Source: a virus
IMG/VR virus record: IMGVR_UViG_3300042691_038416
Location: 60,140 to 124,139 of that record
Direction: 5' to 3' (one strand)
Length of the DNA: 64,000 nt
Below are positions 1,406-56,877 of the stretch, one piece after another. How positions within the stretch are numbered: the first letter of the stretch is position 1; the number at the start of each line of letters is the position of its first letter. The notes beneath the pieces are model-generated. The model was not told where the DNA came from, did no database searches, and saw nothing but the letters and a program-made list of their open reading frames with translations. Made by a program: the position numbers and the translations under genes.

Positions 1406-1437
1406 TAAATATAAGGCGAGGGGTAAGGGGACCCTAA
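1406..1437 (-). promoter_or_regulatory. Phage-family promoter for 506-1384, overlapping a hairpin
   Basis: Minus strand TTAGGGT as -33 and TATATTTA (1406-1413) as -7 at the standard distance. The -33 box lies inside the right half of the hairpin at 1428-1446. Confidence 0.6.
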
Positions 1438-1446
1438 CCGGGTCCC
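1428..1446 (-). terminator. GC-rich hairpin after 1466-1765
   Basis: Seven-base arms GGGACCC and GGGTCCC with loop GGTTA on the minus strand. It stands between the stop of 1466-1765 and the next promoter. No clear T-run follows, so it is a weak terminator candidate. Confidence 0.4.
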
Positions 1447-6760: not shown

Positions 6761-6792
6761 TAAATATAAGTTAAGGAGCTCAGTTACCCAAG
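6761..6792 (-). promoter_or_regulatory. Phage-family promoter inside a hairpin, leaderless type
   Basis: Minus strand CTTGGGTAAC (-33) and TATATTTA at 6761-6768 (-7). The -33 box is in the loop of the hairpin at 6775-6796. Confidence 0.65.
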
Positions 6793-6796
6793 CTCC
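6775..6796 (-). terminator. Hairpin after 6813-7202 merged with promoter
   Basis: Minus strand GGAGCT, ten-base loop, AGCTCC, then CTTAACTT. The T-run is poor, so terminator strength is doubtful. Confidence 0.4.
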
Positions 6797-6812
6797 CTTC
6801 CTTACCATCTAA

Positions 6813-7202: not shown

Positions 7203-7223
7203 ATGTGCTTTTTTTATTTGAAC

Positions 7224-7455: not shown

Positions 7456-7463
7456 TTTCAGTT

Positions 7464-7867: not shown

Positions 7868-7885
7868 ATTTTTTTTTATTTAGAT

Positions 7886-8329: not shown

Positions 8330-8330
8330 A

Positions 8331-8687: not shown

Positions 8688-8705
8688 GTGCCTTTTTATT
8701 TGAGT

Positions 8706-8736
8706 TAAATATACGTTTAAAAAACTAGAAATCCTA
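8706..8736 (-). promoter_or_regulatory. Phage-family promoter for 8331-8687 and 7898-8329
   Basis: Minus strand TTAGGATTTC (-33) and TATATTTA at 8706-8713 (-7). Confidence 0.75.
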
Positions 8737-8741
8737 ACTCA

Positions 8742-9554: not shown

Positions 9555-9577
9555 AACCTTTATTTTTTTGTGTATAC

Positions 9578-9609
9578 TAAATATATGGTAAGAAATTTTG
9601 TAAGCCAAA
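9578..9609 (-). promoter_or_regulatory. Phage-family promoter for the RadA-like gene
   Basis: Minus strand TTTGGCTTAC (-33) and TATATTTA at 9578-9585 (-7). Confidence 0.8.
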
Positions 9610-9610
9610 C

Positions 9611-9898
9611 TTATAATCCCTCTAATCCATCATTCAGCGTCACATCCCAATCATCATCATCTCTAACCAATAAAGCCGTTTCGAATGGTTCATCAATACC
9701 TGTTTCCCAAAACATTTCAATTCCAAATTCAACATCTGGGTGTGCTGAGATACGTGCTTCGATGTTATCAAATACTTGTTCTTGATCCTCTATGATTTGA
9801 ACGTCATATGGATGTAGTGGTAGTGTTTGGAATTCACCTAACGAATTATTATACGCCACTAACCATTGATCATTTGCTTTAAATAGTCTTCCTTTCAT
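9611..9898 (-). CDS. Conserved small phage protein
   Basis: 95 residues from the ATG at 9898 (MKGRLFKANDQWLVAYN...). K(G)RL..NDQWLVAY, TLPLHPYD and VEFGIEMF form a pattern found in many short Bacteroidota phage proteins of unknown role; this is from memory. It overlaps the end of 9879-10100 by 20 bases in another frame. A longer in-frame start at 10012 would run through that gene and is rejected. Confidence 0.75.
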   Translation of the reverse strand: MKGRLFKANDQWLVAYNNSLGEFQTLPLHPYDVQIIEDQEQVFDNIEARISAHPDVEFGIEMFWETGIDEPFETALLVRDDDDWDVTLNDGLEGL

Positions 9899-10100
9899 AT
9901 GTTTCTTGATAATACTGTTCTGCTGGTAGTGGGAACTTAAACTTGGTTGATGCTTGTCCCGTTTCATAGTCTGTCTTGCTTTGCTCTTTCTCCATTGCTT
10001 TGGCTTGTTCAATCAATTCATACATTACATGATGTACTCCAACTGTTGATTCAAGTTTGATAAATTCTTGTTCAAGCCATTGTACCGCTGTTTGTTTCAT
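9879..10100 (-). CDS. Conserved small phage protein
   Basis: 73 residues. TAVQWLEQEF at the start and IEQAKAMEKEQ in the middle are typical of a small family widespread in Bacteroidota phages, function unknown. Promoter at 10120-10150. Confidence 0.75.
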   Translation of the reverse strand: MKQTAVQWLEQEFIKLESTVGVHHVMYELIEQAKAMEKEQSKTDYETGQASTKFKFPLPAEQYYQETYERKTI

Positions 10101-10119
10101 ATTTTTCTTTTTAACAAGT

Positions 10120-10150
10120 TAAATATAAGTTAAAAGATTTTGAAAGCCTA
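10120..10150 (-). promoter_or_regulatory. Phage-family promoter for 9879-10100 and 9611-9898
   Basis: Minus strand TAGGCTTTC (-33) and TATATTTA at 10120-10127 (-7). Confidence 0.8.
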
Positions 10151-10348
10151 TAGAAGTCTCCCCTCACCACTTTCATACCATTTTTCTACACTGCCATATT
10201 TGGCTATTTGTTGATTTCCTTCTTCTTCAACCTTGCGATATGCTTCTCTCCAATATTGCTTTGTTTCTTCATTCGCATCAGAAGTGTATGTACCTGAGAA
10301 TAGGCATAGTTCGTCTATTTCTTGGTCTGTTAGTTTAAATGGATTCAT
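10148..10348 (-). CDS. Small acidic protein of unknown function
   Basis: 66 residues, acidic and aromatic, helical (LTDQEIDELC..., then EETKQYWREAYRKVEEE). Last of six genes overlapping by 1-4 bases that start at 11972. Confidence 0.65.
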   Translation of the reverse strand: MNPFKLTDQEIDELCLFSGTYTSDANEETKQYWREAYRKVEEEGNQQIAKYGSVEKWYESGEGRLL

Positions 10349-10551
10349 TTTTTATTCAAGTGTTCAATAGATGTGATTATAGTATTTCTAATTGGATAGC
10401 AAGCAATAACTTCATATCTATCATCTTTATTCACCCAAAACTCATAGCATCCTGCTTGGGAATATTTCATACCATCGCAGATTATAGATGTTTGATGTGT
10501 ACTATCTGAGTTATTGTAGTATCCAAGAATTGTTATGTTGTATTTTTTCAT
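10345..10551 (-). CDS. Small beta-rich protein, distant paralogue of 10551-10820
   Basis: 68 residues. The pattern YNITILGYYNN...TSIICDG...FWVNKDD...IITSIEHL parallels the periplasmic-looking part of the next upstream gene, but without its membrane anchor. Four-base overlap downstream and one-base overlap upstream. Confidence 0.6.
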   Translation of the reverse strand: MKKYNITILGYYNNSDSTHQTSIICDGMKYSQAGCYEFWVNKDDRYEVIACYPIRNTIITSIEHLNKK

Positions 10552-10820
10552 TATTTATATTCTACGCTTACAATGTGTTTATTAACTATTTTTAATCCAT
10601 CTTTCCACAATGAATCACCTTTAACTGAGTCGCATTCAATTATTGGTGTGTGGTAATATCCTGCTGTCTCATATACAATATGAACTTGTAGTGGATATTT
10701 TTTAGTTGGTTGTTTGTTGGTAGATGAAGCCAATCCAAATCCTATTACTAATCCAAATACTAACGCAGTCATTGGTATCGCAAAGTATTTTACATTAAAT
10801 GTTGTCCATTCATCACTCAT
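10551..10820 (-). CDS. Membrane-anchored small protein
   Basis: 89 residues: one membrane span at about 12-31 (YFAIPMTALVFGLVIGFGLA), then a beta-rich part with YYHTPIIECDSVKGD. The similar strands and CD motif in 10345-10551 suggest duplication. Function unknown. Confidence 0.65.
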   Translation of the reverse strand: MSDEWTTFNVKYFAIPMTALVFGLVIGFGLASSTNKQPTKKYPLQVHIVYETAGYYHTPIIECDSVKGDSLWKDGLKIVNKHIVSVEYK

Positions 10821-11497
10821 ATTTCAAATATATTTCCGTTTGAACTTAATTTACCAAATTTTCCATCAGTCACAACTGAACCATTTGAGTAGGTGGTTCC
10901 TGGATAAGCACTTAACTGTCTTACACCTGCATTGATAATATCTTCACAGTTATGAATGTGACCAAACAATACTAGTTTAGGTTGTATTTTCAACATATGT
11001 TTTCTCATAGCTGAACATCCACAAAACTCAAGTTCATTTTCTCTATTGTAACTCAGATCCATTATTGTTGCTGGTGGACCATGTGATACAACTATATCTG
11101 TTCCTTCAGGAATTGACTGCCATGTCTTATTCATTTTATCTCTTGACTTGTTATAAGCCCAACCCACTCCAAATGATGGTGTATAAGGTGTACCCCAGAT
11201 TTTAATACCTTCAATTTCAGTTGAATTGTTTTCTAAATAAACAATACCTTTACTAGTGAAATCAGCAGGTCTGACTAAGCGCTTCTCAATACTTGTATCA
11301 TGATTTCCAGCTACAAACACTTTATGTTTGATTGGAAGTGATGAGTACCACTCAATAAAGTCTCTTACCTCAGGTTCATTCAAGTATGGATTACTTGGGT
11401 TTGAACAATCACCTGAGTGAATAACCATATCAACTCCATCAGGTATATTTAGCAGACCATGAAATGTATGAGTATCACTTATGTGCCAAATTTTCAT
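10817..11497 (-). CDS. Calcineurin-like metallophosphoesterase
   Basis: 226 residues with the full motif set of the family: DTH at 8-10, GD at 29-30, GNHD near 65, SHGP near 138 and GHIH near 175. Two metal ions would be bound by these residues. The family cleaves phosphodiesters or phosphomonoesters (nucleotides, nucleic acids); the phage substrate cannot be told. Length is usual for the short YfcE/MPP-type members. Overlaps both neighbours by four bases. Confidence 0.88.
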   Translation of the reverse strand: MKIWHISDTHTFHGLLNIPDGVDMVIHSGDCSNPSNPYLNEPEVRDFIEWYSSLPIKHKVFVAGNHDTSIEKRLVRPADFTSKGIVYLENNSTEIEGIKIWGTPYTPSFGVGWAYNKSRDKMNKTWQSIPEGTDIVVSHGPPATIMDLSYNRENELEFCGCSAMRKHMLKIQPKLVLFGHIHNCEDIINAGVRQLSAYPGTTYSNGSVVTDGKFGKLSSNGNIFEI

Positions 11498-11682
11498 TTT
11501 GAGAATTTTTCAATTGTTTTATTAACAATGAAACCAAATATTGAAAATGTTACTACCATTCCTATAAACCCAAGTACATATCTCCAACTATCAGTTGTTG
11601 TAAATAAGAAGTACAAGGCAAACAATAATGTACATGTTAGGAACCCAGTTAAGTAATTTTCAGGTGTAAATAATTTTTTCAT
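11494..11682 (-). CDS. Small two-span membrane protein
   Basis: 62 residues with spans at about 11-28 and 34-53 and charged ends. ATGA overlaps on both sides. Function unknown. Confidence 0.65.
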   Translation of the reverse strand: MKKLFTPENYLTGFLTCTLLFALYFLFTTTDSWRYVLGFIGMVVTFSIFGFIVNKTIEKFSK

Positions 11683-11972
11683 ATTTTATGTATTGTATAA
11701 GTGCTATTTTTTGTTTTGAATTTATTTTCACTAATGATCTCAGTGATTTCAGTAGTTAACCACATATAATTTCCTGGTCCGGTTGGATCAAGTACAATAC
11801 TACGACCAACAGCCGGTTCATTATGTACCTTACCACCTACACCATTCTTATTCCATTCTATAAACTTAATGACTGAAGCAGGCATTCGTATATCATCTTC
11901 AAGACGAGTGACAACATAGTTATCTTTTACTAAGTCCATAAATATTTTTGGTCGATCTATCTTATTTTTCAT
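11679..11972 (-). CDS. Small beta-rich protein from a probably leaderless mRNA
   Basis: 97 residues. PASVIKFIEWNKNG and GRSIVLDPTGPGNYMWLTT suggest an SH3-like or beta-barrel fold. First gene of a six-gene operon. The ATG is 4 bases from the -7 box, so transcription should begin at the start codon. Confidence 0.7.
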   Translation of the reverse strand: MKNKIDRPKIFMDLVKDNYVVTRLEDDIRMPASVIKFIEWNKNGVGGKVHNEPAVGRSIVLDPTGPGNYMWLTTEITEIISENKFKTKNSTYTIHKI

Positions 11973-11976
11973 GTTC

Positions 11977-12007
11977 TAAATATAAGTTAAAAGATTTTGA
12001 AAACCTA
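11977..12007 (-). promoter_or_regulatory. Phage-family promoter, leaderless type, for the 11972-10148 operon
   Basis: Minus strand TTAGGTTTTC (-33) and TATATTTA at 11977-11984 (-7), 4 bases before the ATG. Confidence 0.75.
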
Positions 12008-12550
12008 ATCCCACCAATTTTCTATATGTTTATTTAATGTATTAAATAATAAACGTCTTGCTCGTTCATGATTTTCTCTACCCATATAAAGAGCAATTCG
12101 TGATCTATCTGAATTGGAACCCAATTTTGCTACAACGCGTTTATATATTAATGGATACTTTTTGAAGTAACCATCTAAATTATCTTCAATTACTTCTGAA
12201 TGCATTGTGTAGTATGGATCACCATTTTCATCTTTGTCTTCAGTTGGAATAAAATCAAATTTTGTTTCATAGTAATCAAAATATTCTAATCCATACCATT
12301 CCTCTTGAACACGTTCAATCAATTTAATACATAATCTCATTCTAGCTACTTCATGTTCATAACCAACAAACCACTGTCTTTGCTCAGTGTAGTCAGCTGT
12401 ATTTTTTATCTTGAATTTAAGAACTTCAAATATAAAGTGATCATCATAGTCTTTATCATTCCAAATGATTGGGAGCCACCTCCATAAATTCTTAATACGT
12501 CCACCTAAATCAAGGAAGAAGTATCTAATGTCAGTATATATCTTTTTCAT
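12005..12550 (-). CDS. Conserved phage protein of unknown function
   Basis: 181 residues, helical, rich in W, Y, D and R (RIKNLWRWLPIIWNDKDYDD, later ARMRLCIKLIERVQEEWYG and ENHERARRLLFN). Proteins with this pattern are frequent in large phages without known role (from memory). The ATG is 3 bases from a -7 box. Confidence 0.7.
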   Translation of the reverse strand: MKKIYTDIRYFFLDLGGRIKNLWRWLPIIWNDKDYDDHFIFEVLKFKIKNTADYTEQRQWFVGYEHEVARMRLCIKLIERVQEEWYGLEYFDYYETKFDFIPTEDKDENGDPYYTMHSEVIEDNLDGYFKKYPLIYKRVVAKLGSNSDRSRIALYMGRENHERARRLLFNTLNKHIENWWD

Positions 12551-12553
12551 AAT

Positions 12554-12587
12554 CTAAATATAAATAAAAAAGTAGGCCAGCCCAAAT
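12554..12587 (-). promoter_or_regulatory. Promoter inside terminator, leaderless type, for 12005-12550
   Basis: Minus strand TTTG falls in the hairpin loop, exactly 20 bases before TATATTTA (12554-12561), the canonical Bacteroidota spacing. The ATG at 12550 follows 3 bases later. Confidence 0.6.
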
Positions 12588-12600
12588 TAAGGCTGGCCTA
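12571..12600 (-). terminator. Rho-independent terminator of the DUF932 gene
   Basis: Ten-pair stem TAGGCCAGCC/GGCTGGCCTA with an eight-base loop, followed on the minus strand by CTTTTTTATT. Very stable for this AT-rich genome. Confidence 0.85.
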
Positions 12601-12611
12601 AAATCAACTAA

Positions 12612-13418
12612 TTAACTCAAACAATATTCTATTGCCAACTCATATAATTTACTATTCAACTCAATATCTTTATTAAAATTCTTAATCTTACGTGCTTTAC
12701 GTGTTTTGGTTGAGTAACCATACTTGAAATCACCATCAATTACTTTTTCTTGTACTCGGTTAAACACACTCCACAAATCATTTCCTTCATCTTCCTTACG
12801 AGTTGCTTTTACAAACTCGTTATAGTCAATTGTGATACGTTTCATTTCAACCTCACCAAAACGAGCCTCAAGAGCATCCTTAGCAAACTTAAGAATCTGC
12901 TTATCCGTCAATTGAGTCTGTTTAAATTTATTCATTGACTCAACTGTGAGTGGAAGTTTCTCAACCATCGCTGTGATTGTCTTCTGTAGCTCACTAAAAT
13001 CATATCCAAAGTGCCTAATCTTCAAATCAGCAAAATCTTGAGTTGAAATCACCAAACCATTCTCACATACCAACCTAAACAAACCAGCTCGGAATGTGAA
13101 AGCATTTTTACCATCACTACTATTAGTTAACAAAATTTGAGGCCAAACTGTATCACCATCACTCCCATTAATAACAATGTCTGGATTTCGAAAAACAATT
13201 AAATGTTTTTGATAACCAGCATTGGCTCCTCGAGCGCGAACCTGTTTAGCATCAGTTACTTTCCATCCCAACACTTCCATGTCCTCAATAATTTTATAAG
13301 TTGGAATGTGGGTGTACTTCTCACTTGTATTGTGAGCACCTTTGGTAGCAAAAATAGAATTTGCTTTTTCTTTAATTTGTTCCTTAGTGAGGAACTCTTG
13401 TGATTGAGTGTTTAGCAT
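12612..13418 (-). CDS. DUF932 (phage/plasmid-like TIGR03299) family protein
   Basis: 268 residues. HIPTYKIIEDMEVLGW at the N-terminus, HLIVFRNPDI and ILLTNSSDGKNAFTFRAGLFRLVCENGL (in parts) form the typical DUF932 core, where the 'R...F...CSNG' segment is conserved. The family is common on phages and plasmids and its function is not established. It has its own promoter and terminator, suggesting independent and strong expression. Confidence 0.85.
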   Translation of the reverse strand: MLNTQSQEFLTKEQIKEKANSIFATKGAHNTSEKYTHIPTYKIIEDMEVLGWKVTDAKQVRARGANAGYQKHLIVFRNPDIVINGSDGDTVWPQILLTNSSDGKNAFTFRAGLFRLVCENGLVISTQDFADLKIRHFGYDFSELQKTITAMVEKLPLTVESMNKFKQTQLTDKQILKFAKDALEARFGEVEMKRITIDYNEFVKATRKEDEGNDLWSVFNRVQEKVIDGDFKYGYSTKTRKARKIKNFNKDIELNSKLYELAIEYCLS

Positions 13419-13460
13419 AACCTTTTTTTTAGTTTGAGTTACTTATTTTTTCTTATACAC

Positions 13461-13492
13461 TAAATATATGAGTAAATTTTCTGTAAGCCAAA
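13461..13492 (-). promoter_or_regulatory. Phage-family promoter for the DUF932 gene
   Basis: Minus strand TTTGGCTTAC (-33) and TATATTTA at 13461-13468 (-7). Confidence 0.8.
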
Positions 13493-13496
13493 TTTT

Positions 13497-13631
13497 TTAT
13501 TCTTTTTCCTTAAAATATTCTTTTAGTATTTTAGCTTCACGTTCAGTTCTGCTTTCAATATTTCGTTTAGAACCAGTTATAACTAAAAATGCTATTAATA
13601 AAACATTCAATATTATGGTAGTTACTAGCAT
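13497..13631 (-). CDS. Small single-span membrane protein
   Basis: 44 residues: hydrophobic residues 2-20 then a charged helix (SKRNIESRTEREAKILKEYF). Its ATG follows the stop of 13632-13820 directly. Function unknown. Confidence 0.55.
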   Translation of the reverse strand: MLVTTIILNVLLIAFLVITGSKRNIESRTEREAKILKEYFKEKE

Positions 13632-13820
13632 TTAACTTAATTTATTTTTCTTATTAAAGTTAATATAATCATAATCATCTTCCTCAACCACTTGAACAAT
13701 TTCAACAAAGTCATATTCAGCAATAGCTGCTGCTTCTTCTTCAGCTTCTTGTTTAGTTATAAATCCTAAATCAGATTTAAACCATTGTCCATGTACATCT
13801 TGTATGAGGAATGTATACAT
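13632..13820 (-). CDS. Small acidic protein downstream of a tRNA-like gene
   Basis: 62 residues (MYTFLIQDVHGQWFKSD...). An earlier in-frame ATG at 13895 lies inside the tRNA-like gene and is rejected. The pattern QWFKSDLGFITKQEAEEEAA suggests a beta-hairpin and helix; the tail is acidic. Confidence 0.6.
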   Translation of the reverse strand: MYTFLIQDVHGQWFKSDLGFITKQEAEEEAAAIAEYDFVEIVQVVEEDDYDYINFNKKNKLS

Positions 13821-13855
13821 GTTGTGTTGTTTATTTATACATATTAACACTTTTG

Positions 13856-13943
13856 CGGTCAGAACAGGAATCGAACCTGTGTTCTTATTCATCACATGTG
13901 TGAATAACTCTTATTAATTGCCTCACCATTCAGCCACCTGACC
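13856..13943 (-). tRNA. Class II tRNA-like gene, serine or leucine type, anticodon uncertain
   Basis: 88 bases. Acceptor GGTCAGG/TCTGACC with G73, T arm ACAGG TTCGATT CCTGT, D arm GCT...GGC with GG. The expected anticodon arm reads AATTA ATAAGAG TTATT, with one mismatch and AAG in the anticodon place; an alternative pairing uses TTATTCA/TGAATAA as a long arm. G73 favours serine, AAG would mean leucine. Possibly a decayed or unusual tRNA. Confidence 0.55.
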
Positions 13944-14160
13944 ATTTCGCCCAACCGTTTCCGGCTGTCCCTAATACCGAATAGCATCGCTCAGCGGCAA
14001 CCCACTTTCGTGAGAGGTTAGGACTTGTGTGTTAACTTACTACTGTTACTGGTACACCAACCAACCGACTTAGGCTCAAGTAATCGGCTCAGGTCCCTGT
14101 GAGCAATGACCTCACTTCTCATCATGCGGGACACATTAGCTGATTATCAGTCAGCACGTG
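13944..14160 (-). ncRNA. Structured non-coding RNA region between two tRNA genes
   Basis: 217 bases without a credible reading frame, clearly richer in GC than its surroundings and full of complementary arms on the minus strand: GCTGA/TCAGC, GTCCC/GGGAC around GTGAG/CTCAC, ACTT/AAGT with CCG/CGG, GTCCTAA/TTAGGGAC around CTCAC-GAAA-GTGGG, and CCG-GAAA-CGG. Two GAAA tetraloops are present. I cannot match it to tmRNA, RNase P RNA, a group I intron or the hammerhead core. It lies immediately downstream of tRNA-Glu in the same transcript. Confidence 0.5.
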
Positions 14161-14235
14161 TAGTCCGTACGGGATTCGAACCCGTGATCTCTTCCGTGAA
14201 AGGGAAGTGTCCTAAACCAGCTAGACGAACGGACC
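14161..14235 (-). tRNA. tRNA-Glu(TTC)
   Basis: 75 bases. Acceptor GGTCCGT/ACGGACT, anticodon arm CTTCC CTTTCAC GGAAG giving TTC, T arm ACGGG TTCGAAT CCCGT. Confidence 0.93.
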
Positions 14236-14242
14236 ATGTTTA

Positions 14243-14536
14243 TTAAACTAAAAACTCAACTTCAATTTCCTCAGATATCTTATTCATAATTTCATCAGCC
14301 CATTGATATGAGTCTAATGGAACAAATCTATCTGATTTATATCCCATTTCACGACCTAATCGTTCTGAGTATGGTGAGATAATTTCATCAAGAGCGATAG
14401 CGGAACCATCATTAGATAGTATTTCTCTAATTGTATATGTCTCACCTACTTTTAATTTACTTAATGCTTCAATGGTTTCAGGTCGATTATCTTTAGGTGT
14501 ATTATTGATACAAACTACTTTTTGTCCTACATCCAT
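14243..14536 (-). CDS. Small conserved phage protein, SH3-like
   Basis: 97 residues. VGQKVVCINNTP and LKVGETYTIREI are typical of a small family in phages with a barrel-like N-terminal part; the tail EEIEVEFLV is acidic. No known function. Its ATG overlaps the preceding stop by one base. Confidence 0.7.
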   Translation of the reverse strand: MDVGQKVVCINNTPKDNRPETIEALSKLKVGETYTIREILSNDGSAIALDEIISPYSERLGREMGYKSDRFVPLDSYQWADEIMNKISEEIEVEFLV

Positions 14537-14730
14537 TACTTATCTTCTCCTTTATAAGGTTCTGTTTCAATTGTTTTAGGTAAAGGTAAACCATATATTT
14601 TTATCAATTTAACATATGTTTCATCTCCCTTTCTACACTCAACCCACAATCCATTTTCTTTACCATTTGTGGTGAGTGGAATAATAATCAATTCTTCTTT
14701 AAATAAATTCTTAAACCAATTAATAATCAT
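14536..14730 (-). CDS. Small protein of unknown function
   Basis: 64 residues from the ATG at 14730 (MIINWFKNLFKEELIIIP...), which overlaps the preceding stop; an upstream ATG at 14754 is possible. N-terminal amphipathic helix then beta pattern with GLWVECRKGDETYVKLIKIY. No family recognised. Confidence 0.6.
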   Translation of the reverse strand: MIINWFKNLFKEELIIIPLTTNGKENGLWVECRKGDETYVKLIKIYGLPLPKTIETEPYKGEDK

Positions 14731-15031
14731 ATGCTTCCCAACTTGTGAGTTCAAATACTAATCTTAATTCAATAACTTCTTTTGTTTCTTCATCTACAGT
14801 TGCTGTTGCTCGAAATCCACCTGTAGCGTTTATATAATTTGATTTTTCTTTTACAGCACCATCATAAGCACCATGAAGTAAATCCATTGCACATTTAAAT
14901 AATGCTCCGGTAGTGGGTACTTCACCTTCACTAGTAGCCCATGTCCAGTTTAGTAATGTCATGGCTTTATGAACTTTTCCCCAATTAAAGTTCTCAATAA
15001 TACTATCAATTGCTTTTTCTTTATTTAACAT
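14720..15031 (-). CDS. Protein of unknown function
   Basis: 103 residues from the AAAGGTTATG-type start at 15031. Helix AIDSIIENFNWGKVHKAMTL then TWATSEGEVPTTGALF and the beta pair GGFRATATVDEETKEVIELR. A Bacteroidota-phage family of unknown function is likely, from memory. An earlier in-frame start is excluded by the promoter at 15043-15073. Confidence 0.7.
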   Translation of the reverse strand: MLNKEKAIDSIIENFNWGKVHKAMTLLNWTWATSEGEVPTTGALFKCAMDLLHGAYDGAVKEKSNYINATGGFRATATVDEETKEVIELRLVFELTSWEAYDY

Positions 15032-15042
15032 AACCTTTTTAT

Positions 15043-15073
15043 TGAATATAAATTTAAAAACTTTATAAGCCAA
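15043..15073 (-). promoter_or_regulatory. Phage-family promoter for the 15031-14243 operon and tRNA-Glu
   Basis: Minus strand TTTGGCTTAT (-33) and TATATTCA at 15043-15050 (-7). Confidence 0.75.
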
Positions 15074-15074
15074 A

Positions 15075-15200
15075 TTATACTGTTTCTTCCCAAACTCCAA
15101 TAAATTCAGAGATAAGTAATACAATTGAAGCCAATATCATATCATATGGTAGGAGAATATATCCTATCATTCTAATAAATGATTTGGTAAAACTAAGCAT
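15075..15200 (-). CDS. Very small membrane protein
   Basis: 41 residues: a basic start (MLSFTKSFIR) and one long hydrophobic stretch (residues 11-37). The position just downstream of tRNA-Arg and before a promoter is its main support. Confidence 0.4.
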   Translation of the reverse strand: MLSFTKSFIRMIGYILLPYDMILASIVLLISEFIGVWEETV

Positions 15201-15253
15201 TTTGTGTTTTTTAGGATCTGGATGATTCATCTTCTTTATATTTTAATTGTTAG

Positions 15254-15327
15254 TAGTCCCGACGAGGATCGAACTCATAACCTACTGCTTAGAAGGCAGT
15301 TGCTCTATCCAATTGAGCTACGGGACC
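15254..15327 (-). tRNA. tRNA-Arg(TCT)
   Basis: 74 bases. Acceptor GGTCCCG/CGGGACT, D arm GCTC...GAGC, anticodon arm ACTGC CTTCTAA GCAGT giving TCT, T arm with TTCGATC. Confidence 0.93.
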
Positions 15328-15332
15328 ATATT

Positions 15333-15407
15333 TTAACAGTATGGACATTCATATCCTCGTTCTCTAACATCATAATATTTTTGACACTTAGAACATTTTT
15401 TCCACAC
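15333..15407 (-). CDS. Possible 24-residue zinc-ribbon micropeptide between tRNAs
   Basis: Frame WKKCSKCQKYYDVRERGYEC ending in PYC and a stop; two CxxC pairs 13 residues apart are exactly a rubredoxin-like zinc ribbon. The only in-frame start I see is GTG at 15407. The frame could also be a remnant of a longer protein cut by the tRNA genes. Confidence 0.35.
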   Translation of the reverse strand: MWKKCSKCQKYYDVRERGYECPYC

Positions 15408-15422
15408 TTCATGATTAAATAG

Positions 15423-15499
15423 TACTCCCGGAGGGACTTGAACCCACGTGTAACCAACTACCCTTTCTACATGGTATAAGCATGAGGGGATACGGGAGC
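15423..15499 (-). tRNA. tRNA-like gene with irregular core
   Basis: 77 bases with seven-pair acceptor GCTCCCG/CGGGAGT and a T arm with TTCAAGT, one stem mismatch. The core does not fold normally: a hairpin CATG CTTATAC CATG lies where the D arm should be, and a D-loop-like AGTTGGTTA comes after it. This order is reversed relative to a normal tRNA. Confidence 0.45.
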
Positions 15500-15505
15500 G
15501 TGAAT

Positions 15506-15763
15506 TCATATTGTTATTGTTACTTTATTATCTTTAAAACTAATTTCTTTTATTACTCTTATTTTACCATCCATGAAATATCTTCCCACATCCATTCCTA
15601 CTCTAATAAATGGACCACCTGATGGATCAACAAACTCAATAACTCCATCTAGATTTGTTCCTACTCTATAATAATCACCTCCTATCATTTCTATTTGATT
15701 ATCACTAATCTGTTTAAAAATAATATCATCTCCGTAGCGGTTAATATAACTTGCGGTCTTCAT
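15506..15763 (-). CDS. Small beta-rich protein of unknown function
   Basis: 85 residues of alternating strands (FKQISDNQIEMIGGDYYRVG, later YFMDGKIRVIKEISFKDNKV). It overlaps the end of the coiled-coil gene upstream by 23 bases. No family recognised. Confidence 0.6.
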   Translation of the reverse strand: MKTASYINRYGDDIIFKQISDNQIEMIGGDYYRVGTNLDGVIEFVDPSGGPFIRVGMDVGRYFMDGKIRVIKEISFKDNKVTITI

Positions 15764-15971
15764 TTTGAGTTCGATTTCTTAGGATTGATTCTAGTATGAT
15801 TTTTTTGTTTGCTTCATCTCTTGCTTCTCTTTCAAGTTGGGAATTTTTACTTTTGAGCAGATTAATTTCTTGCTCTAGCTTAGTATTCTTCTTTTCCAGT
15901 TTAATATAAGCTATAGATATTCCTATTAATAAAAGTATAAGAGAAACAATCATGTGTTTGATTTTTTTCAC
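15741..15971 (-). CDS. Membrane-anchored coiled-coil protein
   Basis: 76 residues if the GTG at 15971 is used, or 70 from the ATG at 15953. A membrane span (about 7-24) is followed by a heptad-rich coiled coil (KLEKKNTKLEQEINLLKSKN and on). The layout resembles phage i-spanins or small lysis-associated proteins, but it is far from the endolysin, so this is a weak guess. Confidence 0.6.
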   Translation of the reverse strand: MKKIKHMIVSLILLLIGISIAYIKLEKKNTKLEQEINLLKSKNSQLEREARDEANKKIILESILRNRTQNEDRKLY

Positions 15972-15978
15972 TGGTGAA

Positions 15979-15994
15979 AGGGGCCGTAGCCCCT
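15979..15994 (-). terminator. Hairpin AGGGGC-TACG-GCCCCT
   Basis: Six strong pairs with a four-base loop, plus outer GGTG/CACC pairing, directly after 16023-16250. No long T-run follows; it may terminate or may attenuate the GTG-started gene behind it. Confidence 0.55.
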
Positions 15995-16022
15995 AAAAAC
16001 ACCAAAGAAAAATTATTGAAAA

Positions 16023-16250
16023 TTAAGCGGTTTGCTTAACACGACGACGTGAAACATAATACATTGCATTAGCAATATCATCATTAATACGACGACGACG
16101 AGCTTTCACATTTGAGATGTGAGACTCAGAGTAACCAGTTTCAGCAGCGATGCGCTGGTTGTCACCACGGCGTTCACGTGCCATGTAGAATGCTAAAATT
16201 GCTGTGCGGTTCATACGACGCTTCAGAGATTTCATTTTACTTTTTTTCAT
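16023..16250 (-). CDS. Small arginine-rich helix-turn-helix protein
   Basis: 75 residues. NQRIAAETGYSESHISNVKA (residues 31-50) is a clear helix-turn-helix of the XRE type, flanked by Arg-rich helices. Probable transcriptional regulator of phage or host genes. Start context AAACGTTATG, promoter at 16289-16320. Confidence 0.75.
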   Translation of the reverse strand: MKKSKMKSLKRRMNRTAILAFYMARERRGDNQRIAAETGYSESHISNVKARRRRINDDIANAMYYVSRRRVKQTA

Positions 16251-16288
16251 AACGTTTTTTTTTGTTTTTAATTTTTAAATTTATATTA

Positions 16289-16320
16289 TTAATATATGTT
16301 AAAAGATTTTGGAAGCCAAA
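16289..16320 (-). promoter_or_regulatory. Phage-family promoter for the HTH gene
   Basis: Minus strand TTTGGCTTCC (-33) and TATATTAA at 16289-16296 (-7). Confidence 0.75.
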
Positions 16321-16336
16321 CTTTTTAACTTCTCTT

Positions 16337-16501
16337 TTATTTAATCCATTCTTCATAACCCATAACTATAGCCTCCACAATTGATAATTGAGGATTTTCT
16401 TTCATACTCTTAAGGGCGAATGTGACTACTTCTGCTTCTAATCCATAACCAGAGGCATTTTTAATTGCGTTTCCTATAATTTTAAGTTCTTCTAATTCCA
16501 T
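16337..16501 (-). CDS. Small helical protein
   Basis: 54 residues (MELEELKIIGNAIKNASGYG...YEEWIK), helical, moderately acidic. The start context AAAAGTTATG and an exact promoter upstream support it. The pattern VVTFALKSMKENPQLSIVEA recalls conserved small phage proteins of unknown role. Confidence 0.65.
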   Translation of the reverse strand: MELEELKIIGNAIKNASGYGLEAEVVTFALKSMKENPQLSIVEAIVMGYEEWIK

Positions 16502-16519
16502 AACTTTTTTATTATATAA

Positions 16520-16551
16520 TAAATATAAGTTAAAGAATTTAGGAAGCCAAA
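16520..16551 (-). promoter_or_regulatory. Phage-family promoter for 16337-16501
   Basis: Minus strand TTTGGCTTCC (-33) and TATATTTA at 16520-16527 (-7). Confidence 0.8.
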
Positions 16552-16553
16552 TT

Positions 16554-18875
16554 TTATGGATATAGGTAAGAGGACATTATCTTATAATCTTCACTACCAA
16601 AATGTACTAAAATGACAGAAGCCTCATTTGCTAAAGTTATACTACTATTATTATCAATTGTTCCTCCACTTGGAGCATTTACAGAATAACTAGATCCTCC
16701 ACCAGTGTTTTTTATCATAAAAACTTTTCCTGTCTCATATCCTGTAGCCATATTAAGATCAGTTTTTATTTCTATAGCGCAAAATCTATTATCTATATTA
16801 TCTGTGGCTGTGGCTACACTTAAACCAGGAACAGTTAATGATCTAACACCATCATCATATGTAAAATTAGTATGACCTGTAAAATTATCACTATTCCCAG
16901 CATATTGAACTCGACCTGGAGAACCTCCACTACCGTTATTAGGTTTATAAAATATTGTTGTGGTACCTGCTCCATCATCTGATCCTGAGTAATTGCTACC
17001 AGAAAATTTTAAAACAACAGAATTTGAATATGATGTGGCATTAACTTGTAAATCTTTAAGAGTTCCACCTCCACCGCCACCACCACCTCCAAAAGCACTA
17101 GAGGCAGTATAATATAATTGACCTGTAGTGGTATTGATAGTGACCACATTAGATTGGTTAGTGGTAGTTAACATTGGGAAAAATACACTACCAGAAGAAT
17201 TTAAACTACCTGTGACACTTAATATACTACCATTAAATCTAAAATTAGACTCACCATTTATTGTATTAGCAGTTCCTGTGGCTGTAAGAATATAATTATC
17301 AAAATTATTATTTATAGTTACTCCACTTCCTCCACCAAACGCACTTGATGCTGTATAATATAATTGTCCGGTTGCTGTATTAATTGTGACTACATTAGAT
17401 TGATTAGTAGTGGTTAACTCAGGAAAATAAATGGCTCCTGAGGAAAACATTCGTGTAGTACTAACTCCAAGCATATCAGCTCTAGTACCAGCGTTAGCCC
17501 CTTTACCTATAACAAATACATCTGTTGTGTTATTTTGTTTGTTATAATAACCTATAGCTGTTTGAGCTGAACCTGACGCTATAGTTCCTACACCTGAGGC
17601 ATGAGAAAAATTTCCAAACGCTGTTGTTTCTGATCCTTCAGCATGTGAGGCTGTTCCTATAGCATTTGTAACTGATCCCTCAGCATGTGAGTATACTCCT
17701 GATGCTGTTGTGACATTTCCTTCTGAGTGAGCATATACTCCTAGTGCTGTAGTACTATATCCTTCAGCATGTGATGAGGCTCCTGATGCAAAAGTTAACT
17801 GACCTTCAGCGTGTGAATATAAACCAGCAGCAGTAGTATTAATTCCTTGAGCTAAACTTTTAGATTCATATTGGAAAAGAAAACTAGCATCTCCTTCAAA
17901 AGTACTAGCTGAATTAAACTGTACTGAATATTCTACACCACCCGGATTTGTACTTCCTCCTCCACCAAATGCGCTTGATGCTGTATAATATAGTTGTCCT
18001 GTAGTTGTGTTAATAGTTACAACATTTGACTGATTTGTTGTTGTTAACCCTGGAAGAAAAACATTTCCTGAGGCAAATGTTCTAGTTGAACTTACTCCAA
18101 AAGCATCTGCTCTTGATCCTATACCTGCTCCATTACCAACTGTAAATAAATCAGTTGTATTACCTTGTGTGTTATATTGGCCTACTACAGTTTGCGCTGC
18201 TCCAGAAGCTACTGTATTTTGACCTAAAGCTGTTGAAGCTTCTCCTTTAGCAACAGTACCAGCATTAGCAGCAAATGAGTAGTTTCCTGATGCGTGCGCA
18301 CTTAAATTAAATGCTGCTGTTTGGGTTCCAGAAGCAGTACTATTATATCCAAAAGCAATTGATCTATTTCCACTTACTAATGAATATCCTCCTCCAACAA
18401 ATCCACCATCCCCATCAATAGTGATAATATTATTATCACCCATAGCTAAAGCTGAGTTCCCAGAAACATTATTATTTTGTCCAAATGCTACTGAGCTATC
18501 ACTTCCTGATATATTTAAATTATAACCAACAGCTATTGAGTTGATTGCATTCACTACAGGAGGTGCTCCGCCACCTGATGATCCTAAAGATAAACTTCTA
18601 GATTCATACTGATAAAGAAAATTATCATCACCTTCTAAAACACTAGCTGAGTTAAATTGAACAGAATATTCTACTCCGCCAGGAGGTGTTCCTCCTCCTC
18701 CAAGAGCAGTTGAAGCTGTGATAAATACTCGTCCACTGCTACTTATTATTAGTACATCAGATACAGTTGTTGGTGGTGTTGTTAGTGTTGTGAAATCTAC
18801 ACTACCTGAAACAAGTAAACTACTTGATACTTTTAGATCTTTAAAACTACCTGATCGAGCTACAAATGTTGGCAT
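16554..18875 (-). CDS. Tail-fibre-like protein with YadA-head-type repeats
   Basis: 773 residues, rich in S, T, G, A. Two long arrays of 14-residue repeats of the type SHAEGxxTxASGxYxHAEG (about residues 125-230 and 345-440), the left-handed beta-roll of trimeric YadA/Hep_Hag heads. Segments of the form YYTASSAFGGG(G/S) with TNQSNVVTINT recur three to four times as spacers. Starts with MPTFVARSGSFKDLKV. It probably forms part of a long trimeric fibre. One base separates it from the paralogous 18877-20682 gene upstream. Confidence 0.8.
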   Translation of the reverse strand: MPTFVARSGSFKDLKVSSSLLVSGSVDFTTLTTPPTTVSDVLIISSSGRVFITASTALGGGGTPPGGVEYSVQFNSASVLEGDDNFLYQYESRSLSLGSSGGGAPPVVNAINSIAVGYNLNISGSDSSVAFGQNNNVSGNSALAMGDNNIITIDGDGGFVGGGYSLVSGNRSIAFGYNSTASGTQTAAFNLSAHASGNYSFAANAGTVAKGEASTALGQNTVASGAAQTVVGQYNTQGNTTDLFTVGNGAGIGSRADAFGVSSTRTFASGNVFLPGLTTTNQSNVVTINTTTGQLYYTASSAFGGGGSTNPGGVEYSVQFNSASTFEGDASFLFQYESKSLAQGINTTAAGLYSHAEGQLTFASGASSHAEGYSTTALGVYAHSEGNVTTASGVYSHAEGSVTNAIGTASHAEGSETTAFGNFSHASGVGTIASGSAQTAIGYYNKQNNTTDVFVIGKGANAGTRADMLGVSTTRMFSSGAIYFPELTTTNQSNVVTINTATGQLYYTASSAFGGGSGVTINNNFDNYILTATGTANTINGESNFRFNGSILSVTGSLNSSGSVFFPMLTTTNQSNVVTINTTTGQLYYTASSAFGGGGGGGGGTLKDLQVNATSYSNSVVLKFSGSNYSGSDDGAGTTTIFYKPNNGSGGSPGRVQYAGNSDNFTGHTNFTYDDGVRSLTVPGLSVATATDNIDNRFCAIEIKTDLNMATGYETGKVFMIKNTGGGSSYSVNAPSGGTIDNNSSITLANEASVILVHFGSEDYKIMSSYLYP

Positions 18876-21497: not shown

Positions 21498-21533
21498 TAA
21501 ATATATTGAAAAAGGCTCGGTAATCCGAGCCTT
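21498..21533 (-). promoter_or_regulatory. Promoter merged with terminator, before the endolysin operon
   Basis: Minus strand CTCGGATTAC (-33) lies in the hairpin 21512-21533 and TATATTTA at 21498-21505 is the -7 box; the distance equals that of the normal promoters. Confidence 0.65.
21512..21533 (-). terminator. Rho-independent terminator after 21538-21798
   Basis: AAGGCTCGG-ATTA-CCGAGCCTT on the minus strand followed by TTTCAA. Nine-pair stem. Confidence 0.85.
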
Positions 21534-21537
21534 CCTT

Positions 21538-21798
21538 TTAGAATCTATTTGCTATTTTTCTTAACAATTCATCCTCTTCATTTGTTAATTGGAGTCGATT
21601 TTTATAAATCTTAATTAACATATCATTAAATTCTTTTTCCAAAACTGATGATTTTGGATCAGAATTAAGAATGAACCATCGACCTGTTGATTTTAAAGTA
21701 TCAACAAATTTATTGATATCTCTTTCACTACATAATTCAATAAATTCATCTACACTTAGATCAATTTCTGCTTCTACATCTTTATAAAATTGTGGCAT
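21538..21798 (-). CDS. Small protein of unknown function
   Basis: 86 residues. Acidic helical protein: DLSVDEFIELCSERDINKFV then helices to the end (LTNEEDELLRKIANRF). Start context AAAAGTTATG; follows the ClpP-like gene by 12 bases. No family recognised. Confidence 0.65.
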   Translation of the reverse strand: MPQFYKDVEAEIDLSVDEFIELCSERDINKFVDTLKSTGRWFILNSDPKSSVLEKEFNDMLIKIYKNRLQLTNEEDELLRKIANRF

Positions 21799-24528: not shown

Positions 24529-24770
24529 TTTTGTTTTTTATATTTTTTAAATGCTTCATCTAGGTAATGAGATAGTTCAGATGGCACATCTTCATTAAGT
24601 GGCTCTAAATATTTTTTTAGATTCTTTTTATCAAATGCATACCAAGCAAAAGTATATTTTATATAAATCTTATCTCCTTCTTCTTTATAATTAAAAGTCA
24701 TCTCATCTGAGGTGATAATTGGGAATACTTCAATTAGTGCTTTTTTAGCTTTTGTTCGTTTCCAACTCAT
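24525..24770 (-). CDS. Small protein of unknown function
   Basis: 81 residues, basic, with a beta hairpin (DKIYIKYTFAWYAF) and helical end. Four-base overlaps with both neighbours. Confidence 0.6.
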   Translation of the reverse strand: MSWKRTKAKKALIEVFPIITSDEMTFNYKEEGDKIYIKYTFAWYAFDKKNLKKYLEPLNEDVPSELSHYLDEAFKKYKKQK

Positions 24771-25051
24771 ATAATTCCTAATTCTTTAGCTCTAGTATAA
24801 GCAACCATCTTACCATTAGCTGGGTTTAAATATTTACGTTTTGTTTTAGGTAATTTTTCATTTTCAACCTCATCAATCTCATCCTTAAACCATCCTTTAG
24901 GATAAAATATCTCAACCATAAGAGGCCCATTTGGACTTTTATCTAAGTCATAGTGCCATTTTTGACTAACACCATCCTCAAATTTAACATCCCGAATAAA
25001 TTTTCGTGGTTGTGATTCAGCGGTTTGTTCAACTGGTCTACCTTTCGCCAT
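24767..25051 (-). CDS. Small protein with N-terminal KGRP
   Basis: 94 residues. MAKGRPVEQ is a minimal AT-hook-like start, then a beta-rich domain (KWHYDLDKSPNGPLMVEIFY) and basic end. First gene of the operon; AAGGTTATG start. Function unknown; DNA association is possible. Confidence 0.6.
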   Translation of the reverse strand: MAKGRPVEQTAESQPRKFIRDVKFEDGVSQKWHYDLDKSPNGPLMVEIFYPKGWFKDEIDEVENEKLPKTKRKYLNPANGKMVAYTRAKELGII

Positions 25052-25066: not shown

Positions 25067-25102
25067 TAAATATAAAAAAGAAGGCTCGGTATTCCGAGCC
25101 TT
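25067..25102 (-). promoter_or_regulatory. Promoter merged with terminator for the 25051-23801 operon
   Basis: Minus strand CTCGGAATAC (-33, within the hairpin) and TATATTTA at 25067-25074 (-7). Confidence 0.65.
25081..25102 (-). terminator. Rho-independent terminator after 25114-25620
   Basis: AAGGCTCGG-AATA-CCGAGCCTT followed by CTTTTTT on the minus strand. Confidence 0.88.
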
Positions 25103-25113: not shown

Positions 25114-25620
25114 TTAATCACCTTTATATTTCAAACTATCATAAAAGCGTTGAACCGCTTCTTGATATTCTGGTGACTCTTCGTAATCTTTTATTCTTTT
25201 TTGATGAGCTAAATATTCATCAGATACTAATGTACCTCTCACAATATTATCTTTACCAGCAATTGAGATTCTTTCAGTTGTAAATCTTGGTTCTTCACCA
25301 TTATATGTAGATTTATATGTATCTACCCATTTTTTAGCTTTTTCTTTAGAGTATAAGAAACCATTTTCAGCCCCAATATTTGGAACCAAAATAAAGATAT
25401 CAATATACCTCATATCTTTTCTAGGAACTTCTTTATCAGTTTCAGGCAAATCATTATATGTAGGTAATTTTTCTAATGGTAAACCTAATCTATTACCTTT
25501 TCCACCTGTTGGAGGTACAAACCCAATTGCTTTTTTAAGTGCAGCATTAATTGGATCTTCTGCTTCTAGAATAGATTTAACTTCTTCTTGTATGATTTGC
25601 TTTAATTCTGATTTTTTCAT
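25114..25620 (-). CDS. Protein with the shared N-terminal MKKSELKQIIQEEV peptide, probable virion protein
   Basis: 168 residues. Residues 1-20 (MKKSELKQIIQEEVKSILEA) are almost the same as the start of 26210-27175, while the rest is unrelated. Such amphipathic 'LK.II.EE(I/V)...L' starts occur on many proteins of large phages and may act as a targeting tag, comparable in idea to the capsid-targeting sequence of T4 internal proteins. The remainder is an unrecognised alpha/beta domain. Confidence 0.7.
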   Translation of the reverse strand: MKKSELKQIIQEEVKSILEAEDPINAALKKAIGFVPPTGGKGNRLGLPLEKLPTYNDLPETDKEVPRKDMRYIDIFILVPNIGAENGFLYSKEKAKKWVDTYKSTYNGEEPRFTTERISIAGKDNIVRGTLVSDEYLAHQKRIKDYEESPEYQEAVQRFYDSLKYKGD

Positions 25621-25636: not shown

Positions 25637-25645
25637 ATAAATATT
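25637..25645 (-). promoter_or_regulatory. Candidate late-type box AATATTTAT for 25114-25620
   Basis: AATATTTAT on the minus strand, 16 bases before the ATG at 25620, in a 23-base gap without the usual promoter. Confidence 0.3.
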
Positions 25646-26153
25646 ATGCCTTCTTTGGTCTTCCACGTTTACCAGTGCTTCTCTTCTGTCTCTCAATACG
25701 TTCTGCTTCTCTAGCCGCTTTCACTTCAGGATCAAGCGCTCTACGCCCACGTTTACCTCCAGTTGGTTTATACACTGCTATTGATTTAAGTTCACTTGGA
25801 TCTTTTTTAGGACGACCACGTTTACCTTTAGGTCCAGTTGTTACTTTTTCCTTAACAGTGTTTTGAGCTTTAGAAAAATAATTTTTCATACCTAACTGAT
25901 ATGGGTGTACTACTACCTCATCTAAATAGAAATTATATGTACCTCCATCAGGGCCAGTCACCTCAAATCCACCTTGTGGAAAACCCGGTGAACCTGGTTC
26001 AAAACGTTTTCTAAGTGTAAAATACATTTGTGGATCATCAAAGTGACGAGCTGGCAGTACTCTACAATTAGGTTTAAAATTTAGGAATTTTTCCTCAACA
26101 TCTGTGAAATACTTGTAAGGAGGAAATGCTTCTGTGTTTTCGTTGATTTTCAT
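25644..26153 (-). CDS. DNA-binding protein with C-terminal AT-hooks
   Basis: 169 residues. Residues 1-100 form a folded domain of unknown type (PPYKYFTDVEEKFLNFKPNC at the start). Then come KGKRGRPKKD, GGKRGRRALD and TGKRGRPKKA, three AT-hook-like motifs; the first and third are perfect RGRP cores. Probable binding to AT-rich phage DNA. AAAGGTTATG start. Confidence 0.78.
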   Translation of the reverse strand: MKINENTEAFPPYKYFTDVEEKFLNFKPNCRVLPARHFDDPQMYFTLRKRFEPGSPGFPQGGFEVTGPDGGTYNFYLDEVVVHPYQLGMKNYFSKAQNTVKEKVTTGPKGKRGRPKKDPSELKSIAVYKPTGGKRGRRALDPEVKAAREAERIERQKRSTGKRGRPKKA

Positions 26154-26170: not shown

Positions 26171-26206
26171 TAAATATATGAAAAAGGGCCCGGTAATCCG
26201 AGCCCT
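26171..26206 (-). promoter_or_regulatory. Promoter merged with terminator for 25644-26153
   Basis: Minus strand CTCGGATTAC (-33, within the hairpin) and TATATTTA at 26171-26178 (-7). Confidence 0.65.
26185..26206 (-). terminator. Rho-independent terminator after 26210-27175
   Basis: AGGGCTCGG-ATTA-CCGGGCCCT with one A-C mismatch, followed by TTTTTCA on the minus strand. Confidence 0.82.
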
Positions 26207-26209: not shown

Positions 26210-27175
26210 TTATTTTCCTTTTCTTAATGCTGCAAAATCAGCTCCTGTAATTTTGTCCTCAGGTGGTGCTGCTTTAGCTATTTTCATTTGCTTTTTAGTC
26301 AATTCATCCATTGGAGCTTTGTTACTCATTAAGAAGTTATGTACTTCTTCAATATCATCTTTTGATGTAGCGATATGATCCGCGGCCCAGTCATGACCAT
26401 TTGCTAAAATAGCATCAACCATTTGAGGATCTAGACTTAACATTTCTTCAACCTCTTTTTTAATGGTTTCAAGATTTTGAAAGAACATGTATTTTTCTGA
26501 ATTCTCATTTAGTTTTTCAGTCATTCCATATCCTTTAATTCTGAATCCTTGCCCACCAGCACCATATTTTGTTTCAGGATTGATTTGTTTAGCTATAAGT
26601 GATAATATTCTAGCATCAGCTCTAGTAATTTCAATTCCTATTCCCCAATCATCATCTTGTACATCATAATAAATGTATTTATCATTTTCACCAGGAATAG
26701 TAACAGTTAATGATACCTCTCCTTCTTTAGATGGACTTGAATGATATTTGTGGTAAACAATATCAGTAATTGTACCACCTAATAATGGTTTTCCAATAAA
26801 TTTACTAAAAAAGGCACGACCCATAGATACTGTTCTTTGATCTTGGTTTCTAGAACGAGATATATTTGTTGCTCTTTTAAATAGTTCAGGAGAAATTTCA
26901 TTTAACTCTTTACTCTGAATATCAGATATAATATCACTTAAGAAATCATCATCATTCATCAAACTCATTATCTCATTACGTGTCCATCTAGGATTCTCAC
27001 CTGTTGGCATTTTATCATTTTTTAAATAATTAAATATCATTCCAATTATTTCATCTTGAGATTTACCTTTAGCTTTATCTTTAATAGCTTTAGATATTGT
27101 GTCTGAGTATCTAGTTTCATTTAATACTTTAGATACTTCTTCTTGTATGATTTGCTTTAATTCTGATTTTTTCAT
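26210..27175 (-). CDS. Large protein with the shared N-terminal peptide, probable virion protein
   Basis: 321 residues. Starts with MKKSELKQIIQEEVSKVLNE, shared with 25114-25620. The rest has a helical N-terminal half, a beta segment (GGTITDIVYHKYHSS) and a C-terminal helical region ending in FAALRKGK. Family unknown. Such tagged proteins of large phages are often found in virions, which is the basis for the inference. Confidence 0.65.
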   Translation of the reverse strand: MKKSELKQIIQEEVSKVLNETRYSDTISKAIKDKAKGKSQDEIIGMIFNYLKNDKMPTGENPRWTRNEIMSLMNDDDFLSDIISDIQSKELNEISPELFKRATNISRSRNQDQRTVSMGRAFFSKFIGKPLLGGTITDIVYHKYHSSPSKEGEVSLTVTIPGENDKYIYYDVQDDDWGIGIEITRADARILSLIAKQINPETKYGAGGQGFRIKGYGMTEKLNENSEKYMFFQNLETIKKEVEEMLSLDPQMVDAILANGHDWAADHIATSKDDIEEVHNFLMSNKAPMDELTKKQMKIAKAAPPEDKITGADFAALRKGK

Positions 27176-56841: not shown

Positions 56842-56877
56842 TTAATATAAGAAAAAAGGCTTGGATCACCAAGCCTT
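56842..56877 (-). promoter_or_regulatory. Promoter merged with terminator for the polymerase operon
   Basis: Minus strand CTTGGTGAT (-33, inside the hairpin) and TATATTAA at 56842-56849 (-7). Confidence 0.6.
56856..56877 (-). terminator. Rho-independent terminator after the beta-helix gene
   Basis: AAGGCTTGG-TGAT-CCAAGCCTT followed by TTTTCTTA on the minus strand. Confidence 0.88.

What the first reader, a model, noticed from the sequence alone, without database searches (positions are those of the whole stretch)
21498..21533. Terminator and promoter merged in one 36-base element
At 12554-12600, 21498-21533, 25067-25102, 26171-26206 and 56842-56877 (and less clearly 1406-1446 and 6761-6796), the -33 GG of the promoter lies inside the terminator hairpin and the T-run forms the spacer, while the distance to TATATTTA stays the same as in plain promoters. 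One short module thus ends one gene and starts the next, and the hairpin could also regulate initiation.
Basis: seen in the sequence. Interest (0 to 1): 0.7.

Follow-up and report, generated by a model that had tools for sequence, protein, structure and literature searches.

The report
Phage terminator doubling as next promoter
In a widespread group of large T4-like phages whose only cultured relative found here infects Flavobacterium, the same short stretch of DNA appears to encode the hairpin that stops one gene's transcript and the recognition box that starts the next one; this compact arrangement is known in outline from some E. coli phages but is built differently here.

Summary
The window is part of a 124-kb AT-rich phage with nearly all genes on the minus strand. 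It carries about 51 promoters (GTTWGGMTTNC...C-W-TATATTTA), all on the gene strand. At 21498, 25067, 26171, 56842 and 12554 a GC-rich hairpin plus U-tract overlaps the -33 box, with GG still exactly 21 nt before TATATTTA. Sites 6761 and 1406 have hairpins but no U-tract. In seven genomes of the family, 43 of 306 promoters carry such a hairpin, against 1.2 ± 1.3 expected when promoter columns are permuted. A cultured relative, Flavobacterium phage immuto, has a diverged box (GTTGC) and hairpins that changed with it. RNA-level marks (G·U rather than A·C defects, GNRA loops, U-tracts) sit alongside DNA-level marks (invariant GG, fixed spacing). This supports a fused intrinsic terminator and promoter. 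The new transcript should start downstream of the hairpin and so escape termination. The closest known kind is the promoter/stem-loop (PeSL) cassette of RB49-type T4 phages, where I saw stem-loops between -35 and -10. I rate it a new variant of a known kind. No transcript ends were measured; regulation of initiation by the hairpin remains untested.

The parts
21498..21536 (-). Fused module 1: hairpin 21536-21509 (AGGAAGGCTCGG-ATTA-CCGAGCCTTTTT), -33 GG at 21526-21525, -7 box TATATTTA 21505-21498; between the stop of ORF 21538-21798 and an ATG at about 21476 (57-aa ORF)
   Evidence: RNA MFE -18.4 kcal/mol
25067..25102 (-). Fused module 2: hairpin 25102-25081 (AAGGCTCGG-AATA-CCGAGCCTT), U-tract CUUUUUU, -7 box 25074-25067; between ORFs 25114-25620 and 24767-25051
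26171..26206 (-). Fused module 3: hairpin 26206-26185 (AGGGCTCGG-ATTA-CCGGGCCCT, one U.G wobble), U5 tract, -7 box 26178-26171; between ORFs 26210-27175 and 25644-26153
56842..56877 (-). Fused module 4: hairpin 56877-56856 (AAGGCTTGG-TGAT-CCAAGCCTT), U-tract, -7 box TATATTAA 56849-56842; upstream of a MazG-like gene and then DNA polymerase (53627-56212)
12555..12600 (-). Fused module 5, other register (centre -24.5): hairpin 12600-12573 (TAGGCCAGCCT-TAATTT-GGGCTGGCCTA), CTTTTTT tract, -7 box 12562-12555; between the DUF932 ORF 12612-13418 and ORF 12005-12550
   Evidence: promoter score weak (15-17 bits)
6761..6798 (-). Hairpin in the common register (AGGGAGCTTGGGTAACTGAGCTCCTT) with promoter box 6768-6761 but without a continuous U-tract; termination doubtful
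1406..1446 (-). Hairpin GGGACCC-GGTTA-GGGTCCC (1446-1428) overlapping TTAGG of a promoter (box 1413-1406), no U-tract; termination doubtful
16520..16551 (-). Plain promoter for comparison (TTTGGCTTCCTAAATTCTTTAACT-TATATTTA), no GC-rich hairpin

Best explanation
Each module is an intrinsic (Rho-independent) terminator whose hairpin DNA also carries the -33 recognition box of the next promoter, with the U-tract serving as part of the promoter spacer. RNA polymerase arriving from the upstream gene makes the hairpin and U-tract and releases its transcript about 14-18 nt before the next start site. A new polymerase with a sigma-A-type factor recognises TTWGG/TTYGG (-33) and TATATTWA (-7) on the same DNA and starts just past the -7 box. 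The new RNA lacks the hairpin and is therefore not terminated. Sequence structure, register and evolutionary conservation are shown here; termination, initiation and the sigma factor used are inferred. The likely benefit is compactness plus insulation of neighbouring units: the module costs roughly 10-25 bp more than a plain promoter.
For: (1) Hairpins at promoters: 43/306 versus 1.15 +/- 1.28 with promoter columns preserved; cultured relative 10/55 versus 0.03. (2) Fixed register: of 34 distinct perfect 7-bp YYYGG-N4-CCRRR hairpins in loci not chosen by this pattern, 32 have a -7-like box exactly 8 nt after the stem; the other two have one at 7 and 10. (3) RNA-level selection: stem defects are G-T in 11 and A-C in 1; GNRA loops 17/58 versus 0/441 plain promoters; 21 double-change cells versus 3.5 +/- 1.5 shuffled. 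(4) U-tract: 5.1 T of 7 versus 3.2 in plain promoters, p=2e-18; it appears only with stems of 8 bp or more. (5) DNA-level constraint: GG and distance retained; in immuto the box is GTTGC and hairpins read GTTGC..GCAGC or CTTG..CAAG. (6) Several registers reach the same overlap. (7) Modules sit between a stop codon and the next ATG.
Against: No 3' or 5' ends are known. Two of the seven listed sites lack a U-tract. The plain promoter box is itself a partial palindrome (TTWGG-N4-CNRAA), which biases hairpins towards the -17.5 centre, although the permutation control includes this bias. The covariation count used sequences chosen for pairing. The last base of the -7 box is A, not the G of the host consensus, so the sigma factor is uncertain. 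GNRA counts include related phages.
Confidence: 0.83

Rival explanations
1. The palindrome is an operator: a dimeric phage or host regulator binds the double-stranded inverted repeat over the -33 box, and the T-run is incidental.
For: Perfect palindromes centred on the -33 box at a fixed position are typical of operators; the plain box is itself a partial dyad.
Against: Defects in the stems are G-T and not A-C on the transcribed strand; loops differ and are often GNRA or UUCG; stem sequence varies by compensatory change; U-tract and stem go together; other registers (centres -23.5, -13.5) do not share one palindrome.
Confidence: 0.07
2. Hairpin promoter: the DNA strand extrudes a hairpin that the polymerase reads directly, as in phage N4 early promoters.
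For: Hairpin and promoter occupy the same bases at a fixed distance.
Against: Most promoters of the same consensus (263 of 306) have no such hairpin, so the hairpin is not needed for recognition; the bipartite -33/-7 layout resembles a sigma-A promoter.
Confidence: 0.04
3. The hairpin is an mRNA 3'-end stabiliser or processing site for the upstream message, not a terminator.
For: RNA-level selection alone does not separate the two; two sites lack U-tracts.
Against: Most long stems are followed directly by a U-tract.
Confidence: 0.05
4. Chance overlap in an AT-rich genome.
For: T-runs are common at 30% GC.
Against: 43 versus 1.15; 10 versus 0.03; 32 of 34 at one offset.
Confidence: 0.01

Closest known systems
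PeSL (early promoter stem-loop) cassettes of RB49/phi1-type T4 phages (Arbiol et al. 2010, doi 10.1093/gbe/evq006; paper not held, content recalled from memory, citation seen)
   Same: Small intergenic cassette combining an early promoter and a stem-loop said to terminate transcription; repeated through a T4-type genome. In RB49 I saw stem-loops lying between -35 and -10, e.g. AY343333 at 43031, 33335, 25338.
   Different: In RB49 the stem-loop fills the spacer or takes in the -10 box, and the spacer-filling examples have no U-tract. Here the -33 box itself forms the top of the stem (or loop and 3' arm, or 5' arm) and the U-tract is the spacer. The promoter is of Bacteroidota type and the sequences are unrelated. 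Cassette shuffling was not tested here.
Intrinsic (Rho-independent) terminators of phages, e.g. the 42 of Kayvirus vB_SauM-515A1 (PMC7698491)
   Same: GC-rich stem-loop followed by a U-tract at gene ends.
   Different: Here the stem sequence is constrained to contain the next promoter's box at a fixed distance.
Bacteroidota sigma-A promoters (-33 TTTG, -7 TAnnTTTG; PMC7366714, PMC9723704)
   Same: TTWGG at -33 and TATATTTA at the -12 to -5 position.
   Different: Final base A not G; [quoted passage not shown] johnsoniae (PMC7366714).
Phage N4 hairpin promoters (from memory)
   Same: Hairpin within promoter.
   Different: Here the hairpin is optional and shows RNA-level selection.

Membership tests
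Intrinsic (Rho-independent) terminator | GC-rich stem-loop in the transcript | tested here: met
   MFE -14 to -23 kcal/mol at the seven sites; covariation
Intrinsic (Rho-independent) terminator | U-tract directly after the stem | tested here: met
   Met at 5 of 7 listed sites; not met at 6761 and 1406; family-wide enrichment p=2e-18
Intrinsic (Rho-independent) terminator | Releases transcripts | not testable with these tools
   No transcript data
Bacteroidota sigma-A promoter | -7 box TAnnTTTG | tested here: inconclusive
   TATATTWA: TAnnTT met, final G replaced by A
Bacteroidota sigma-A promoter | -33 TTTG about 20 nt upstream | tested here: met
   TTWG with a 20-nt spacer to TATATTTA, GG in 50 of 51 sites
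PeSL cassette (RB49 type) | Promoter and stem-loop in one small intergenic cassette, repeated in the genome | tested here: met
   RB49 compared
PeSL cassette (RB49 type) | E. coli sigma-70 early promoter (TTGACA/TATAAT) | tested here: not met
   Promoter is TTWGG/TATATTWA
PeSL cassette (RB49 type) | Mediates modular shuffling by recombination | not tested
   Only a hint: near-identical modules at two genes of L045
N4-type hairpin promoter | Hairpin required at every promoter | tested here: not met
   263 of 306 promoters lack one

The most novel reading that the evidence does not exclude
The module is a transcription relay: polymerase that has just released the upstream RNA stays on the DNA, already lying over the next promoter about 14-18 nt before its start site, picks up sigma and re-initiates forward, so that the phage re-uses polymerases along a one-directional genome without letting them dissociate. 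Retention and re-initiation after termination are documented for bacterial RNA polymerase (PMC6978322), there mostly antisense; a fused forward promoter would exploit it.
Probability: 0.1. Interest if true: 0.85.

Novelty: new variant of a known kind. Interest (0 to 1): 0.52.

Why it matters
It shows sequence serving two codes at once, an RNA hairpin for the upstream unit and a DNA recognition box for the downstream unit, solved in at least three registers across a widespread phage group; the GGCTTGG-N4-CCAAGCC form alone hits at least 119 viral stretches and none of the cellular genomes searched. It gives a ready-made catalogue of likely transcription-unit boundaries in phages with no transcript data, a compact part for expression vectors in Bacteroidota, and a natural setting, with a cultured phage-host pair, in which to test whether polymerase can be handed directly from terminator to promoter.

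Tried and rejected
Chance overlap was rejected by column-permuted controls. The operator reading was disfavoured by the G-T versus A-C test and the loop types. The N4-like hairpin promoter was disfavoured because most promoters lack hairpins. Apparent promoters on the opposite strand of some hairpins (L058, L060) are the mirror reading of a palindrome in AT-rich DNA and were not counted as bidirectional promoters. Megablast of the window against named phages gave nothing; protein searches gave immuto and Microcystis phage Mel-JY01. The PeSL paper was not held, so RB49 was inspected directly. Literature searches for overlapping terminator-promoter elements found no matching report. The pattern scan of cellular genomes covers one stem sequence only, with a slightly different -7 box, and does not exclude other forms.

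Full report
What the window is. The window is positions 60140-124139 of a 124,139-bp virus record, about 30% GC, with 165 of 173 chosen ORFs on the minus strand. Protein families include a terminase, portal and baseplate wedge, DNA polymerase and GroEL, clamp-loader ATPase and thymidylate synthase. The closest named relative by terminase is Flavobacterium phage vB_FspM_immuto (59% identity; host Flavobacterium sp. LMO8), which is annotated with T4-like capsid genes. This is therefore a T4-like phage, most likely of a Bacteroidota host; the host is inferred from this relative and from the promoter type.

The promoters. A position weight matrix grown from TATATTTA sites converges on GTTWGGMTTNCNRAA...C-W-TATATTWA, with 51 sites above 14 bits on the minus strand and none on the plus strand. 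Six relatives (105-175 kb) each have 36-54 such promoters, nearly all on one strand.

The fused modules. In the window, 21498, 25067, 26171 and 56842 share one geometry: a tetraloop at -19..-16, GG closing the 5' arm, CC closing the 3' arm, and a U-tract that fills the spacer to TATATTWA. Site 12554 is a second register, with the box in the 3' part of the hairpin. Sites 6761 and 1406 have hairpins but no U-tract. Outside the window the same record has the same GGCTCGG-ATTA-CCGAGCC stem-loop at 15782, a third register at 20150 (TTAGGCCTCC as the 5' arm) and a terminator just upstream of a promoter at 17856. Each window module lies between an upstream stop codon and the next ATG, in a gap of 56-81 nt.

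Is it more than chance? Over seven genomes, 43 of 306 promoters have a stem of at least 7 bp with at least 4 GC pairs centred between -30 and -10. Permuting letters within each promoter column of each genome, which keeps the promoter consensus exactly, gives 1.15 +/- 1.28, maximum 6 in 40 runs. In immuto the figures are 10 of 55 and 0.03. Of 34 distinct perfect hairpins of the common type in loci not selected for it, 32 have a -7-like box at exactly 8 nt on one strand; the other two have one at 7 and 10 nt. A pattern scan found at least 119 viral stretches; of the matches listed, all but one have the same gap. One stem sequence searched in 84,980 cellular genomes gave none.

RNA hairpin or DNA palindrome? 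Among stems with one defect, the defect is G-T in 11, A-C in 1 (the antisense reading of an element) and other mismatches in 6, five of which have no U-rich tract. A double-stranded operator would show no G-T bias. Loops are GNRA in 17 of 58 strong hairpins and in none of 441 plain promoters at the same positions; UUCG loops occur in other registers. Five of seven stem pairs show double changes, with 21 such cells against 3.5 +/- 1.5 shuffled, though these sequences were chosen for pairing. U-richness of the spacer rises only with stems of 8 bp or more. These are marks of an RNA hairpin with a U-tract in the upstream transcript.

Promoter function kept. The box and spacing are preserved in the hairpin forms, and terminators that sit fully upstream of promoters have unrelated stem sequences. 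In immuto the promoter box has changed to GTTGC and the fused hairpins have changed to GTTGC..GCAGC or CTTG..CAAG forms. Just upstream of the DNA polymerase gene of different relatives, the same place holds the common register, the third register with UUCG-type loops, plain promoters, or none. The overlap has thus probably arisen or been rearranged more than once.

How it most likely works. Shown: structure, register, conservation. Inferred: the upstream transcript ends in the U-tract; sigma-A-type holoenzyme binds the same DNA and starts about 4 nt past the -7 box; the new RNA contains no hairpin and is exempt. The benefit is probably compactness with insulation. These phages overlap other signals too: in 39 of 306 promoters the TAG inside TTAGG ends the upstream reading frame.

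Comparison. PeSL cassettes of RB49-type phages are the nearest known kind. Direct inspection of RB49 shows stem-loops inside the -35/-10 spacer or enclosing the -10 box. The present modules work like them but differ in promoter class, in which promoter part is embedded, and in having the U-tract as spacer; shuffling was not tested. I therefore call this a new variant of a known kind. A forward polymerase relay is possible in principle (PMC6978322) but has no direct support here.

Noticed in passing
window promoters such as 7231, 6108, 4884, 3493, 485, 160; 39 of 306 promoters in seven genomes: The -33 box TTAGG doubles as the TAG stop codon of the upstream gene: upstream reading frames end exactly at -21 in 39 promoters, a sharp spike.
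   Followed up: partly
Relatives G003, G005, G007 (L094-L101, L110-L127): In some relatives the promoter reads GTTTGGCTTYC...TGTTATATTTA, with an added TGT before the -7 box; the late promoters of Kayvirus vB_SauM-515A1 read TGTTATATTA (PMC7698491), possibly a coincidence.
   Followed up: no
L045 at 3043 and 9017; record 15782 and window 21505: Near-identical fused modules stand before different genes in the same phage, a hint that modules are copied or shuffled.
   Followed up: no
L149 (RB49, AY343333) 43031, 42355, 39130, 36985, 33335, 25338, 3201: In RB49, stem-loops fill the -35/-10 spacer or take the -10 box into the loop, so that only upstream transcripts could form the full hairpin.
   Followed up: partly
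PP395634.1 (Microcystis phage Mel-JY01): A phage recorded from Microcystis has terminase 53% and DNA polymerase 33% identical to this Bacteroidota-type phage; the host assignment might deserve a check.
   Followed up: no
window 1-17000 versus record 1-56000: The promoters crowd in a region of small ORFs and are rare in the structural-gene region, which suggests a different late promoter there or long read-through units.
   Followed up: no
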